Part shown: positions 3,983 to 11,199 of the stretch, piece by piece
Layout of the letters: each line of letters starts with the position of its first letter
Position numbering within the stretch: position 1 is the stretch's first letter
Assembly: GCF_025950095.1 (NCBI RefSeq)
Contig: NZ_JAPDDR010000011.1
Location: 1 to 64,000 of the forward strand
From: Luteolibacter rhizosphaerae
Lineage (GTDB): Bacteria > Verrucomicrobiota > Verrucomicrobiia > Verrucomicrobiales > Akkermansiaceae
Length of the DNA stretch: 64,000 nucleotides
Direction: 5' to 3'
Program-made: the position numbers and the translations under genes
The notes under the pieces: model-generated
What the model was told of the DNA's origin: nothing
What the model saw: only the letters and a program-made list of their open reading frames with translations
The model's database searches: none

Positions 3983-4633
3983 GTGTCCTCGCCCACGCTC
4001 TACCTCTTCGGCGGCCCCAATGGATCGGGGAAAACCACGTATGCCCGGGCGTTCCTTACCTCACAGTTTGAGCACCCGCTTCGCTTCCTGAACGCCGATG
4101 AGATGGCCCGAGGCCTATCGCCCCTGTCGCCTGAGTCCGTGGCGCTGAAAGCCGGGAAGCTTCTGCTCCGAGAGATCGACGAGTGCATCGCGGCCGGCAC
4201 TTCGTTCGGGCTTGAATCTACCCTGAGCGGGTCTGCTCAAGTTCGAATCCTTCAGCGCGCCAAAGCGAGGGGCTATCTGGTCGAGCTCCACTTCTTTGCC
4301 CTCCCGTCACCGGAATTGTCTATCGCCCGGATAGCCCAGCGTGTCGAAAAAGGTGGCCACCATGTTCCCGACGACGATGTCATGCGCCGCTACCCGCGGA
4401 GCCTGGGAAATCTCGCGCGCATCTACGAACCTCTCTCCGATCACTGCTTCCGCTGGAATAACGTCGCCGTTCCCGCCGCCCTTGAACCCGCACAATCGAG
4501 AACCGTGGATGCGTTTTCGGAACCTGCGACCGCGGCCGCTCGGGTGATGGCTTCAGACCTTTTGGCCGAGCAAAAGAGATGGCGTCTCCCTCTCCTCACT
4601 TGGAGAGGCGGTGCACTCTCGGAATTGACGTGA
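3983..4633 (+). CDS. Zeta-toxin-like P-loop ATPase/kinase
   Basis: A 216-residue soluble protein with a GTG start at 3983. Residues 6-20 hold a Walker A motif, LYLFGGPNGSGKTTYA. An Asn-Ala-Asp-Glu segment (NADEMARGLSP) and a later ESTLSG segment match the zeta toxin/AAA_33 family, in which an Asp and Arg bind the substrate; zeta toxins phosphorylate UDP-N-acetylglucosamine. Members of this branch that stand alone are usually small kinases rather than toxins. No epsilon-type antitoxin gene is visible next to it; the neighbour at 4687 is a small membrane protein on the other strand. Kinase activity is well supported; toxin activity is not. Confidence 0.8.
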   Translation: MSSPTLYLFGGPNGSGKTTYARAFLTSQFEHPLRFLNADEMARGLSPLSPESVALKAGKLLLREIDECIAAGTSFGLESTLSGSAQVRILQRAKARGYLVELHFFALPSPELSIARIAQRVEKGGHHVPDDDVMRRYPRSLGNLARIYEPLSDHCFRWNNVAVPAALEPAQSRTVDAFSEPATAAARVMASDLLAEQKRWRLPLLTWRGGALSELT

Positions 4634-8442: not shown

Positions 8443-8520
8443 AGGCCCCCGGCCCGCGGCTGCAGGGTAGCAGAGGGGTCAAGGGAGAGGATCGCGAAGT
8501 TGCCGAGAGAATTTAGATCA

Positions 8521-9075
8521 TCAGAGCTTCTCCAAACCAGGAAGCACCGCTTGATTTGGGTCAGCTTCTGGCTCCACTGGCTTTGGAGCCTCCGGCTTCT
8601 TAATGACCAACTTATCCAATAAAGGGTGTCCACTAAGATTCAGGAGGGAGCACTTGTCTTTGTCCACCTTTCCGCCATCGAACGTGTGGATTTCATCAAC
8701 TCCCAGGATCATTGCTGTCGCCACATGGATAGCATCGGGGACCGAGATTTTGAAAGCTGGCTCAGCCTTGTGGAGGTCCGCCCGCAGTCGACGGGCTTTC
8801 GTCATCACCTTAAGCTCAGCCCCATAAAGGCTGTGGTGAGATGCGTTGAACGACCGCTGAAATCGGTCCTCTAGATCCTTATCGTCAATGCAGGAGGTTA
8901 CCTCAAGCAACGTGATGGTGGACGTTACTATGATCGCATTCCGGCTCTCGGCGGCCTCAGCAAGCTCGATGATGTCTGGCAACCATTTGATGTTTGCCGC
9001 ATTTCGGTGAGAGTCTGGATATAGCCGTGTGATGTAGACACAAGAGTCCCAATAGTATTTGGGCTTACCAATCAT
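8521..9075 (-). CDS. PIN-domain ribonuclease-like protein
   Basis: A 184-residue protein with a PIN fold. The metal-binding acidic residues are visible in order: Asp in YYWDSCVYI near residue 10, Glu in TLLEVTSCID near residue 58, Asp in VPDAIHVATA and Asp in HTFDGGKVDKD. PIN proteins are Mg-dependent RNases and are the toxins of VapBC modules, but those are usually about 130-140 residues with a small DNA-binding antitoxin. Here the upstream partner (9065-9904) has 279 residues and no helix-turn-helix. The two overlap by 11 bases and are surely co-transcribed. The C-terminus is Pro- and Glu-rich (PEAPKPVEPEADP). A toxin or defence role is inferred only. Confidence 0.85.
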   Translation of the reverse strand: MIGKPKYYWDSCVYITRLYPDSHRNAANIKWLPDIIELAEAAESRNAIIVTSTITLLEVTSCIDDKDLEDRFQRSFNASHHSLYGAELKVMTKARRLRADLHKAEPAFKISVPDAIHVATAMILGVDEIHTFDGGKVDKDKCSLLNLSGHPLLDKLVIKKPEAPKPVEPEADPNQAVLPGLEKL

Positions 9076-9904
9076 CGTCGATATCGTGCGGGGAGGTTCC
9101 GTCGATGAAGCTTTCAGGGCTTCCGACCAAGGTGCTGAATTTGACTACGGATGAGGGGTGCAGTTCCTCGATCTCCGATAGCTCCATCATGTATGGGAAG
9201 TCGGATTTTTCCCGGTAATGCATAAAACCCGAAATGCGGACATACTTGTCCGCCAACTCCAGAATCTTCTTCCGAAAGAGGAGATTGAAGGTGCACCGAA
9301 TCTTCTTAGGTCCGATGGGGGGGTAGACATAGCACGAGTAGGGCCCTGACCCATGGACGTTCAGCGCCTCCAGTTGGCCGTCAAGGGTGCCATGTGATAC
9401 CAGTTCGCTGTTGATCAGCTTGGATACGTTAGATGAGAACTGCTGATCCAAGTCGAGCTGCGTATCTCCGTAGATCACGGACGACCGCGCGATGCCATTC
9501 GACGAAGATGGCGCTACTGCCTTAAGCGATACGAGCACTTGAGGGTCAACCTCATCTGAGACGCCAGCCTTATCCTTGATAGACCGAAGTTCACTCATCA
9601 AGCGTCGTGGTCTGTTTTCGACCTTGGGTGGCTTATAGGTCGGCAGGGCCTGATTCTTCGGGAGCTTCTTCTCGCGTCGCGGCAGTGCGACTGGCTCAAG
9701 CTCGATTGTTGCGGGACTCGAATGGCTGAGATTGACGACTCGGTAATAGACCTCTGGACGTCCACCTGGACTTTCCATCTGATCGAACTGATGGAGGATC
9801 TTCTTCCATTCCTCTAGTGCCTTCAGAAATTCACTCAGGCGCAGGTGCCCTTCCTCTTCGGGAAGACCCTCCAGCCGGATGAGAATGTTTCTGCGCGAGT
9901 CCAT
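9065..9904 (-). CDS. Conserved protein of unknown function paired with a PIN nuclease
   Basis: A 279-residue soluble protein whose end overlaps the start of the PIN gene by 11 bases. It begins NILIRLEGLPEEEGHLRLSE with a following helix (FLKALEEWKKILHQFDQ), has a region with VVNLSHSSPATIELEPVAL, a basic linker (RREKKLPKNQALPTYKPPK), a helical middle, and a beta-rich C-terminal half (SCYVYPPIGPKKIRCTF, YVRISGFMHY). I cannot assign it to a named family. The strict coupling to a PIN gene suggests an antitoxin, inhibitor or target-recognition subunit. It lacks an obvious DNA-binding motif, so it differs from VapB types. Confidence 0.7.
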   Translation of the reverse strand: MDSRRNILIRLEGLPEEEGHLRLSEFLKALEEWKKILHQFDQMESPGGRPEVYYRVVNLSHSSPATIELEPVALPRREKKLPKNQALPTYKPPKVENRPRRLMSELRSIKDKAGVSDEVDPQVLVSLKAVAPSSSNGIARSSVIYGDTQLDLDQQFSSNVSKLINSELVSHGTLDGQLEALNVHGSGPYSCYVYPPIGPKKIRCTFNLLFRKKILELADKYVRISGFMHYREKSDFPYMMELSEIEELHPSSVVKFSTLVGSPESFIDGTSPHDIDDDW

Positions 9905-10191
9905 GGGTTAAAGGACTATACGTCGGAACACTATGATCTCAATCGATCCGGCACGAGTCATTGGGAGGTGGCACCAGCCTAGCGTGACTGTCAAGCCACC
10001 CAAAATCGGTCAACACTTCCTCTGCATCTCCCGCGCCACCCTTCAAGAAAACCAGTTGCGCGACGGGCATCCGGCATTACAGGTGCGGCGGTCGCCAAAC
10101 CGAACCGGCGATACTCCTCCCCTCCACACTTAGACCCCGCCCGGCACGCCGGTCCCGGGGTCATTTCTTTTCCATCTACCCGCGCCACCCC
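9905..10191. other. Short non-coding stretch with two copies of a repeat
   Basis: No gene is seen. It carries two of three copies of a roughly 29-base repeat, listed separately. Confidence 0.4.
10019..10047. repeat. Short dispersed repeat, copy a
   Basis: The core CATCTCCCGCGCCACCCTTC is shared with copies at 10167-10195 and 10675-10704. On the opposite strand it reads GGGTGGCGCGGGAGATG. The right-hand part resembles the 3' end of a tRNA acceptor (CTCCCGCCACC), as in the fragment at 54569-54622. Confidence 0.5.
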
Positions 10192-10195
10192 TCAG
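10167..10195. repeat. Short dispersed repeat, copy b
   Basis: The core CCATCTACCCGCGCCACCCC differs from copy a by a few bases. It runs into the stop codon of the gene at 10192-10464. Confidence 0.5.
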
Positions 10196-10464
10196 AACCG
10201 CGAGCACCACAGCGCCCCGTGTGCCAGATGGAAGGCGTTAAGTGGCTTGGGCACTTCGATGCGGACCTCGACCGGCCTGACCTCCTTGTCCTCCCCGTTC
10301 CAGTCCCACTCGTGGCGCATGAAGTTCACCAGCATGTCGCGGGCGATCCGCTCGGAATCGTTGGGCGGCGTCTGGCCGTTGTACGCTGAAGGGTGAAGCT
10401 CGACCACCATATCGAGCGCGAAGTCATCGCGGATTCCGATTTTCAAGTAGTGTCTGGGGTTCAT
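10192..10464 (-). CDS. Hypothetical protein
   Basis: A 90-residue protein that starts MNPRHYLKIGIRDDFALDMV. Composition is protein-like with alternating hydrophobic strands (VRPVEVRIEVPKP) and a helical middle (DSERIARDMLVNFMRHEW). I do not recognise the family. It stands alone between dispersed repeats a/b and c. Confidence 0.55.
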   Translation of the reverse strand: MNPRHYLKIGIRDDFALDMVVELHPSAYNGQTPPNDSERIARDMLVNFMRHEWDWNGEDKEVRPVEVRIEVPKPLNAFHLAHGALWCSRF

Positions 10465-10674
10465 GGGAGTGAACGCCCGGATCGCTACGACCGAAAAAAT
10501 GCGCCGTCAAGAGGGGCATGGTAAGGGTATTACTTAGGGCTCCTCAATTGACCGCCGGGCGCTCACCTTCATAGCCTTTCTTCAATTCATTCTCTGGGGA
10601 GAGAAGAATTACTGGACCAGCAGTCCAGGAACGGCGGCCCGCCTGAGAAACGGGTCGCCGTTCGAGTTCCAAGG

Positions 10675-10746: not shown

Positions 10747-11199
10747 TCAGGGTCCAAACGTCCCGGGTCCCTTGGTCGCATCTGTCTGCGGAAACGGGCC
10801 GCGAGAAATCGAGATCCCTCCGGGATCATTTCCGCGAGTACCGTGGAAGAAGTTGGGATCCCGAATGGTGTCGGCCTCGGCGAGCAGAGTGAACGCCACC
10901 AATCCGACGCAATGGACCGAGGCGAGAATCGCGAAAAAATAGATCAACTTCCGCTCATGGTTCAGATGCATGAACACCAATGCCACGAGTGACGATTTGA
11001 AGGTGGCGATCAGCAGCCCAAGCACCAAGTCCGCGGTGTCGAATCCGTGGCGACCGAAATCTAGTGCAGGAATGGTGGCAACAGCGACCGTGGCCAGCGT
11101 CCCACAGAAGAGAACAAGGCCGATGAGTAGATACAGTCGCATCGATCGGCGGATAGCGGAAGGGTCGAAGGAAGTATCGGCGTCCATTAGATTAGGCAT
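10747..11199 (-). CDS. Cytochrome c oxidase subunit IV-like membrane protein
   Basis: A 150-residue protein with three predicted membrane helices: LYLLIGLVLFCGTLATVAVA, then ADLVLGLLIATFKSSLVALV, then IYFFAILASVHCVGLVAF. The pattern of a second helix ending in K-SLV-FMHL followed by E-K-I is typical of prokaryotic COX4/CtaF subunits of caa3-type oxidases. The C-terminal 45 residues are hydrophilic and Gly/Pro-rich, longer than usual. No catalytic oxidase subunits I to III are nearby, so this is an orphan subunit or a relocated copy. Confidence 0.75.
   Translation of the reverse strand: MPNLMDADTSFDPSAIRRSMRLYLLIGLVLFCGTLATVAVATIPALDFGRHGFDTADLVLGLLIATFKSSLVALVFMHLNHERKLIYFFAILASVHCVGLVAFTLLAEADTIRDPNFFHGTRGNDPGGISISRGPFPQTDATKGPGTFGP

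What the first reader, a model, noticed from the sequence alone, without database searches (positions are those of the whole stretch)
8521..9904. PIN nuclease coupled to a 279-residue unknown protein: possible unusual toxin-antitoxin or defence module
The 184-residue PIN protein keeps its acidic active-site residues. Its upstream partner overlaps it by 11 bases and is far larger than a VapB antitoxin, with no DNA-binding motif visible but a basic linker and a beta-rich second half. The pair lies in accessory DNA next to TPR-like genes and repeats. This is the best candidate in the window for an undescribed two-gene system.
Basis: partly seen in the sequence, partly recalled or inferred. Interest (0 to 1): 0.65.

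Follow-up and report, generated by a model that had tools for sequence, protein, structure and literature searches.

The report
Transposon-borne PIN nuclease partner pair
A VapC-like nuclease gene and an unusually large OB-fold partner gene form a conserved pair that elsewhere rides inside small bacterial transposons and phages, so it is probably an undescribed mobile toxin-antitoxin-like module.

Summary
In detail: a 184-aa PIN protein and a 279-aa partner overlap by 11 bases. They form a rare conserved unit. Partner-led searches gave 9 relatives (two weak hits dropped), 8 with a PIN beside them; PIN-led finds have the partner upstream in 5 of 5. Four acidic PIN residues are invariant in 14 of 14. 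The window partner matches no Pfam, NCBIfam, PHROGs or PADLOC model. Its model has a small alpha/beta domain, an OB-fold and a disordered tail, often ending in a conserved tryptophan. The main result is context: of 14 pairs, five lie in elements with inverted ends and exact 8-bp duplications (four with IS1- or IS1595-type transposases, one without), two beside such transposases, three in phage or viral contigs. In one element an IS1595 transposase DNA-binding domain replaces the partner's N-terminal part. The window copy has no transposase or ends; it fills one of five repeat-flanked slots in its genome, others holding sce7726/sce7725 genes and a SecB-like gene. Best reading: a VapC-type toxin with an OB-fold antitoxin/regulator, carried as transposon and phage cargo. 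Toxicity, neutralisation and target are untested. New variant of a known kind.

The parts
8521..9075 (-). PIN-domain protein, 184 aa, VapC-like fold, putative RNase toxin
   Evidence: Pfam PF01850 25.3 bits, cut-off 23.6; D10/E58/D114/D133 invariant in 14 of 14; model pLDDT 80.6, Foldseek best hit a VapC, E 2.5e-5
9065..9904 (-). OB-fold partner protein, 279 aa, putative antitoxin or regulator; overlaps the PIN gene by 11 bases
   Evidence: No family match; partner-led relatives carry the PIN beside them in 8 of 9; model pLDDT 78.4
9686..9886 (-). N-terminal beta-alpha-beta-beta domain of the partner (residues 7-73)
   Evidence: Secondary structure of the model; in viral contig L025 its place is taken by an IS1595 transposase zinc-ribbon/HTH domain
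9164..9403 (-). OB-fold domain of the partner (residues 168-247)
   Evidence: VIA-align Z 9.4 to PriB over 75 residues, rmsd 2.9; SSB and RPA-type OB domains at Z 8-9; Foldseek best E 5.1e-3
9068..9154 (-). Partner tail (residues 251-279), predicted disordered; W279 conserved
   Evidence: pLDDT below 50; W279 invariant in 7 of 7 rows, kept in 8 of 11 in a wider set
9915..9942 (-). Promoter-like site TTGAGA-16-TATAGT, 10 bases before the partner ATG
   Evidence: Consensus scan: 1 found, 0.7 expected from shuffles, so no better than chance
8447..8484 (.). 38-bp repeat at the left border of the variable slot
   Evidence: Copies at four other places in the genome, 93.8% (over 32 bp) to 100% identical
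10192..10464 (-). 90-aa ORF in the repeat at the right border of the slot
   Evidence: Four further copies, 84-90% identical, one with a stop inside; a sixth match is only 28%; DNA repeat from 10154, 10171 or 10194 to at least 10487

Best explanation
The pair is a type II toxin-antitoxin-like module. Shown by sequence and models: a VapC-fold PIN protein with a complete acidic site, and, overlapping it, an upstream OB-fold protein with a conserved disordered tail; the two are inherited together, often as cargo of IS1/IS1595-type transposons and of phages. Inferred: the PIN protein is a ribonuclease toxin; the partner, made first, neutralises it with its C-terminal tail as VapB tails do (recalled); the OB domain and a separate or fused DNA-binding module (an upstream small RHH-like protein in some copies, the IS1595 end-binding domain in L025) let the complex repress the operon promoter near the element end. 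The benefit would go to the mobile element: loss of the element, or infection by a rival, frees the toxin. The window copy is a chromosomal descendant, without transposase or ends, kept in a variable slot.
For: Partner-before-PIN order: PIN beside the partner in 8 of 9 partner-led finds, partner before the PIN in 5 of 5 PIN-led finds. Acidic tetrad 14 of 14; VapC fold. Partner and PIN diverge together: r = 0.86 over 10 pairs, 0 of 20,000 permutations as high. Transposon cargo: exact 8-bp target duplications plus inverted ends (12/16 or better) in L015, L018, L019, L025, L026; 0 of 2000 and 0 of 2100 control placements gave such a hit. Transposases: PF03400 in L015, PF12762 in L018 and L019. 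Phage or viral-contig cargo: L024, L030, AV001. Disordered tail with conserved tryptophan. Precedent: TA pairs, PIN toxins included, embedded in Tn3 transposons (PMC7157771, abstract and passages).
Against: Toxicity, neutralisation and complex formation are untested. The partner is about three times the size of the genes before 8 other PINs of this genome (79-114 aa) and has no recognisable antitoxin DNA-binding domain. In G872 the partner is broken into two frames (102 and 172 aa) beside an intact PIN, which should be harmful in a TA pair unless it is a sequencing error. In G840 a partner homologue has no PIN. Four of 14 pairs, the window among them, show no mobile-element sign in what I checked (end scans, ORFs by eye, and for the window two transposase families genome-wide).
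Confidence: 0.5

Rival explanations
1. Guided nuclease rather than toxin: the OB-fold partner recognises a nucleic-acid structure (single strand, tRNA, or foreign transcript) and brings the PIN nuclease to it, so the pair works as an interference or superinfection-exclusion system of transposons and phages.
For: OB-fold closest to PriB, SSB, RPA and tRNA-synthetase anticodon domains. Lies in what look by eye like structural-gene regions of viral contigs L024 and L030 and beside the S24-type repressor of Pseudomonas phage AV001, places where exclusion genes are common (recalled). Partner larger than the gene before each of the 8 other PINs examined.
Against: No PADLOC match for the window pair and one marginal match (E 0.0095) among 10 homologous proteins. 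OB-folds also bind proteins. The conserved tail and partner-first order are those of TA pairs.
Confidence: 0.22
2. Transposition regulator: the pair acts on the transposon itself, for example limiting transposase mRNA with the PIN nuclease and binding the element ends through the partner or its DNA-binding helpers.
For: L025 joins the IS1595 end-binding domain to the OB half and no catalytic DDE domain was recognised in that gene. Cargo lies directly downstream of the transposase on the same strand in L018, L019, L026 and G778. Lima-Mendez et al. suggest a regulatory role for TA pairs in Tn3 (PMC7157771, abstract).
Against: Pairs also live in phages and chromosomes without a transposase seen beside them; in the two IS1-type copies the transposase is divergent.
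Confidence: 0.15
3. Inert or housekeeping RNA-processing pair picked up by chance by mobile elements.
For: The window copy has no element ends, and G872 has a broken partner.
Against: Repeated presence in several element types and hosts, an invariant active site and co-divergence speak for selection.
Confidence: 0.1

Closest known systems
VapBC type II toxin-antitoxin systems
   Same: PIN toxin of VapC fold with full acidic site; partner gene upstream and overlapping; disordered C-terminal tail in the partner
   Different: Partner 259-310 aa in the unfused intact copies, OB-fold, no RHH, AbrB, Phd or HTH match; activity untested
TA pairs embedded in Tn3-family transposons (Lima-Mendez et al. 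2020, PMC7157771)
   Same: TA-like pairs, PIN toxins among them, carried in transposons
   Different: IS1/IS1595-type elements instead of Tn3; Pfam found none of that paper's antitoxin families in the window partner
IS1595- and IS1-family transposons with passenger genes
   Same: Transposase families PF12762/PF03400, inverted ends, 8-bp target duplications in homologous loci
   Different: Window copy has neither transposase nor ends; my paper searches listed no report of an OB/PIN cargo
PriB/SSB/RPA OB-fold proteins
   Same: OB-fold of about 80 residues, Z 8-9
   Different: Only one domain of the partner; 6-21% identity in the rows shown; no replication context

Membership tests
VapBC type II toxin-antitoxin | PIN toxin with four conserved acidic residues and VapC fold | tested here: met
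   Invariant D/E/D/D in 14 of 14 (D10 was part of the search pattern for three of them); Foldseek top hits VapC
VapBC type II toxin-antitoxin | Antitoxin gene directly upstream, overlapping or abutting | tested here: met
   Overlap of 11 bases; in the 13 other pairs from a 17-base overlap to a 3-base gap
VapBC type II toxin-antitoxin | Small antitoxin with RHH, AbrB, Phd or HTH DNA-binding domain | tested here: not met
   279 aa, no family match, OB-fold; 8 other PINs of the genome have 79-114 aa upstream genes
VapBC type II toxin-antitoxin | Toxicity of the PIN protein and neutralisation by the partner | not testable with these tools
   Needs expression assays
IS1595 transposon cargo | PF12762 transposase, inverted ends and 8-bp target duplication around the pair | tested here: not met
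   Window: no PF12762 or PF03400 match in the genome, no ends found in the ranges scanned. Homologues: ends and duplication met in L018, L019, L026; PF12762 scanned and met in L018 and L019
Known anti-phage defence systems (PADLOC-DB 2023) | Match of either protein to a PADLOC model | tested here: not met
   No match for the window pair at E up to 1; for 10 homologous proteins one marginal match, E 0.0095
Tn3-family transposon TA modules | Tn3 transposase and resolvase beside the pair | not tested
   No Tn3 model was searched; the transposases identified beside homologues are IS1- or IS1595-type
OB-fold nucleic-acid-binding proteins | OB barrel that binds single-stranded nucleic acid | tested here: inconclusive
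   Fold matches; binding not testable

The most novel reading that the evidence does not exclude
IS1/IS1595 transposons and phages share a mobile conflict module in which an OB-fold protein aims a VapC-type nuclease, and in which transposase end-binding domains have been taken over as the DNA-binding part of the cargo system itself (L025, and a stand-alone IS1595-type domain beside sce7726/sce7725 in another slot of the same genome). The module would act against competing elements rather than as simple addiction.
Probability: 0.2. Interest if true: 0.82.

Novelty: new variant of a known kind. Interest (0 to 1): 0.6.

Why it matters
It would add a TA-like system with an OB-fold partner to the cargo of very small bacterial transposons, outside the Tn3 family, and show the same module in phages. 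The joining of a transposase end-binding domain to the partner makes a clear, testable link between cargo control and transposon ends. It also gives copies in named records (Methylobacterium pMOC1, Roseomonas p1318-1, Pseudomonas phage AV001) on which the function can be tested.

Tried and rejected
Searches that found nothing new: genome contigs with the window partner and with A3 (only the three loci already known); plasmids and phages with P0002; plasmids with the L011 and L012 partners and with the L018, L019 and L026 partners (only the Roseomonas or Methylobacterium record itself); phages with the AV001 partner (only itself); viral contigs with A1, A3 and the L019 partner and with A8 (only L026 itself); 387 genomes of the phylum with A1 (the window and one chance hit). 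So the family is rare in these collections, at limited sensitivity: with one sequence, did not report G104, which the profile found.

Hits dropped as chance: L013 (G141, E 8.6e-4; no PIN seen among ORFs of 100 aa or more; no match with the profile) and G453 (E 6.5e-4 and 3.6e-4, one stop inside). Counting them, the partner-led figure would be 8 of 11. One search (A10, largely a PIN model) gave weak matches in G137, G201 (two) and G157, also dropped: L033 and L034, looked at, are PINs behind a 334-aa ORF that does not resemble the partner by eye; L035 and L036 were not opened.

Rejected: that the window copy is a complete IS1/IS1595 element (no ends with duplication in the ranges scanned; no PF12762 or PF03400 match in the genome; no copy of the L015 end motif in the window). 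The repeat-flanked slots C4a and C4b show no such ends; C2 and C11 slots were not scanned. No ends with duplication were found around L016, L017, L024, L030, G104 (L027), G872 or G840. Weak candidates (11/16) were ignored: two near L025 and one near G778 that does not enclose the pair. The partner's N-terminal domain was not identified: the fold comparison covered mainly residues 167-252.

In one search the L015, L023 and L024 partners were trimmed at the N-terminus and L025 was left out of the permutation test (r with it 0.85). The 8-of-11 tail count leaves out AV001, G872, G778 and G840. The RHH label of small upstream ORFs and the phage-gene labels in L024/L030 are by eye, except the L015 ORF (Pfam NikA-like 27.1 bits, cut-off 27; Pfam found nothing in those of L016 and L017). 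The IS1 label of G104 rests on 51% identity to the L015 transposase.

Full report
What is there. On the minus strand of the window a 279-aa protein (9065-9904) is followed, with an 11-base overlap, by a 184-aa PIN protein (8521-9075). Pfam gives the PIN 25.3 bits against PF01850 (cut-off 23.6); the partner gets no match in Pfam, PADLOC, NCBIfam or PHROGs at E up to 1. The genome (6.23 Mb) lies in the same order as G031, G167 and G047, whose contigs match records titled Akkermansia, Verrucomicrobiales and Verrucomicrobiia MAGs. It has 12 PF01850 matches. For 8 of the other 11 I looked at the gene upstream: 79-114 aa, the usual antitoxin size. The window pair is the exception.

Conservation. With the partner as query, relatives turned up in G047, G031 and G167 (3 besides the window among 386 genomes of the order), G104 (all 4 matches among 74 genomes of that family carry the pair), viral contig L030, Pseudomonas phage vB_PaeS_AV001 (profile comparison probability 99.1, E 7.5e-19), and G872, G840 and G778 (5 of 384 genomes matched, one the window itself and one, G453, dropped as chance). 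A PIN gene follows the partner in 8 of these 9; G840 has none. With PINs as query, plasmids of Roseomonas marmotae and Methylobacterium oryzae and viral contigs L024, L025 and L026 appeared; the partner precedes the PIN in 5 of 5. The partner of L018 is related to A1 with probability 94.8 (E 5.1e-8); that of L019 reaches only 46.8 (E 2e-4), so L019 rests also on position and neighbours. In all, 14 pairs. D10, E58, D114 and D133 of the PIN are invariant in 14 of 14; D10 was part of the search pattern for L024-L026, the other three were not. Over 10 pairs, partner and PIN identities correlate with r = 0.86, and 0 of 20,000 permutations reach it. Homologous partners also lack clear family matches: among those scanned the only hits were sub-threshold (AV001, Pfam DUF948 15.5 bits; L019, PADLOC E 0.0095) apart from the IS1595 domain of L025.

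Structure. The PIN model (pLDDT 80.6, seven sequences) matches VapC proteins best, E 2.5e-5. The partner model (pLDDT 78.4, four sequences) has a beta-alpha-beta-beta domain (7-73), a poorly predicted linker, a mixed middle, an OB-fold (168-247) and an unordered tail (251-279). VIA-align puts the OB domain nearest PriB (Z 9.4, 75 residues, rmsd 2.9), with SSB, RPA and tRNA-synthetase domains at Z 8-9; Foldseek alone gave no E below 0.001. The final tryptophan is invariant in the 7 rows of A12 and kept in 8 of 11 in a wider set. A disordered tail of this kind is how VapB antitoxins grip VapC (recalled, not tested).

Mobile context. A scan for inverted ends flanked by an 8-bp duplication found exact duplications around L015 (GAATCGAG, ends 16/16), L018 (TATCTTTA, 13/16) and L019 (AATCGGAA, 12/16), L026 (AATAAAAA, 15/16) and L025 (ATTTCTTT, 16/16). 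The test at 12/16 or better gave 0 of 2000 random placements in the window and 0 of 2100 in seven loci with a reversed right part. The transposases are IS1-type in L015 (PF03400, 27.3 bits, cut-off 24.1) and IS1595 in L018 and L019 (PF12762, 124.5 and 116 bits); that of L026 is 75% identical to that of L018; L025 has none of its own. G104 has an IS1-type transposase, 51% identical to that of L015, and G778 a decayed IS1595-like one, without recovered ends. L024 and L030 lie at the same place in two related viral contigs, against the strand of genes that look structural by eye, and AV001 has the pair just behind its S24-type repressor; its PIN is annotated 'repressor protein' but hits PF01850 at 35.3 bits. 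So of 14 pairs, 5 lie in bounded elements (two of them, L025 and L026, in viral contigs), 2 beside such transposases, 3 in phage or viral contigs without ends found, and 4 (window, G047, G167, G872) show nothing of the kind.

A telling variant. The L025 element has no recognisable DDE domain. Its first gene (328 aa) starts with an IS1595 zinc ribbon (PF12760, 32.5 bits) and the following HTH region, 34-40% identical to IS1595-type transposases over 114-125 residues, and continues as the OB half of the partner, followed by a PIN, a 48-aa ORF and an M78 (ImmA/IrrE-like) peptidase. Small ORFs recur: a 43-62 aa ORF behind the PIN in all five IS1595-linked copies (L018, L019, L025, L026, G778; likeness judged by eye and doubtful for G778), and an RHH-like ORF before the partner in L015, L016, L017 and L023. 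The window has nothing that resembles either by eye.

The window locus. No PF12762 or PF03400 match is found in this genome and no bounded element around the pair. Instead the flanks recur: a 38-bp repeat (8447-8484) and a repeat holding a 90-aa ORF (10192-10464) enclose the pair, and four more such slots of 1.05-2.67 kb exist in C2, C11 and twice in C4, each with other genes. One slot carries a stand-alone IS1595-type DNA-binding domain (35% identical to the L025 gene over 119 residues; Pfam 17.2 and NCBIfam 40.6 bits, both below cut-off) with sce7726 and sce7725 family genes (142 and 215 bits, cut-offs 70 and 60); another holds a SecB-like gene (Pfam 43.1 bits, cut-off 26) with ORFs of 195 and 119 aa. 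An IS1595 transposase listed with sce7726 and sce7725 genes in one genomic island is reported for Leptospira (PMC12457778, passages), so that association recurs. The pair thus sits in an exchangeable accessory slot.

How it most likely works. I rank a TA-like module first (0.5): PIN as RNase toxin, OB-fold partner as antitoxin made first, operon repressed through the partner and its DNA-binding helpers, benefit to the mobile element. Against it: partner size, a broken partner beside an intact PIN in G872, and no activity data. A partner-guided nuclease (0.22) and a transposition regulator (0.15) remain open. The single promoter-like site 10 bases before the partner start is no better than chance.

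Known or new. TA pairs in Tn3 transposons are known, PIN toxins included (PMC7157771: abstract, outline and passages). [quoted passage not shown] My full-text searches for IS1595 with passenger genes, toxin-antitoxin or PIN, and for PIN with OB-fold antitoxin, listed no report of this pair (listings and abstract starts, long lists capped). The one paper holding both 'PIN domain' and 'IS1595' (PMC6211672, passages) names them in unrelated places. The library lacks most subscription papers; the IS1595 founding paper, recalled, was not seen. The pair is not a VapBC by the antitoxin criterion, but may work like one. I file it as a new variant of a known kind.

Noticed in passing
window 8447-8484 and 10154-10487; L058 (C2), L059 (C11), L060 and L061 (C4): Five paralogous slots in one genome share a 38-bp repeat on one side and a repeat with a 90-aa ORF on the other, each with different cargo of about 1-2.7 kb: OB/PIN, a 306-aa protein, a 256-aa protein, a SecB-like set, and an sce7726/sce7725 set. 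How cargo is exchanged is unknown.
   Followed up: partly
L061:1871-4375: Stand-alone IS1595-type zinc-ribbon/HTH protein without DDE domain directly before sce7726 and sce7725 family genes and an 88-aa ORF; suggests transposase DNA-binding domains reused as regulators of conflict genes. A Leptospira island lists the same three families together (PMC12457778, passages).
   Followed up: partly
L060:2280-3618: 195-aa ORF, 119-aa ORF and SecB-like 134-aa protein in one slot; resembles a toxin-antitoxin-chaperone arrangement (TAC recalled).
   Followed up: no
window 10747-11199: COX4_pro-type gene with a 94% identical copy on C2, a 74% copy also on C2 and a 53% copy on C6 with a stop inside.
   Followed up: no
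window 3983-4633: Zeta-toxin/AAA_33 kinase-like gene about 4 kb from the pair (Pfam Zeta_toxin 46.5 bits).
   Followed up: no
L030:4308-4934: Uma2 nuclease-like gene beside the pair in viral contig L030 (Pfam 105.2 bits).
   Followed up: no
L037:4291-4824: Pseudomonas phage AV001 gene annotated 'repressor protein' is a PIN-domain protein.
   Followed up: yes
L075:3728-4552: Partner homologue without a PIN gene in G840, ending in LRAEW plus extra residues.
   Followed up: partly
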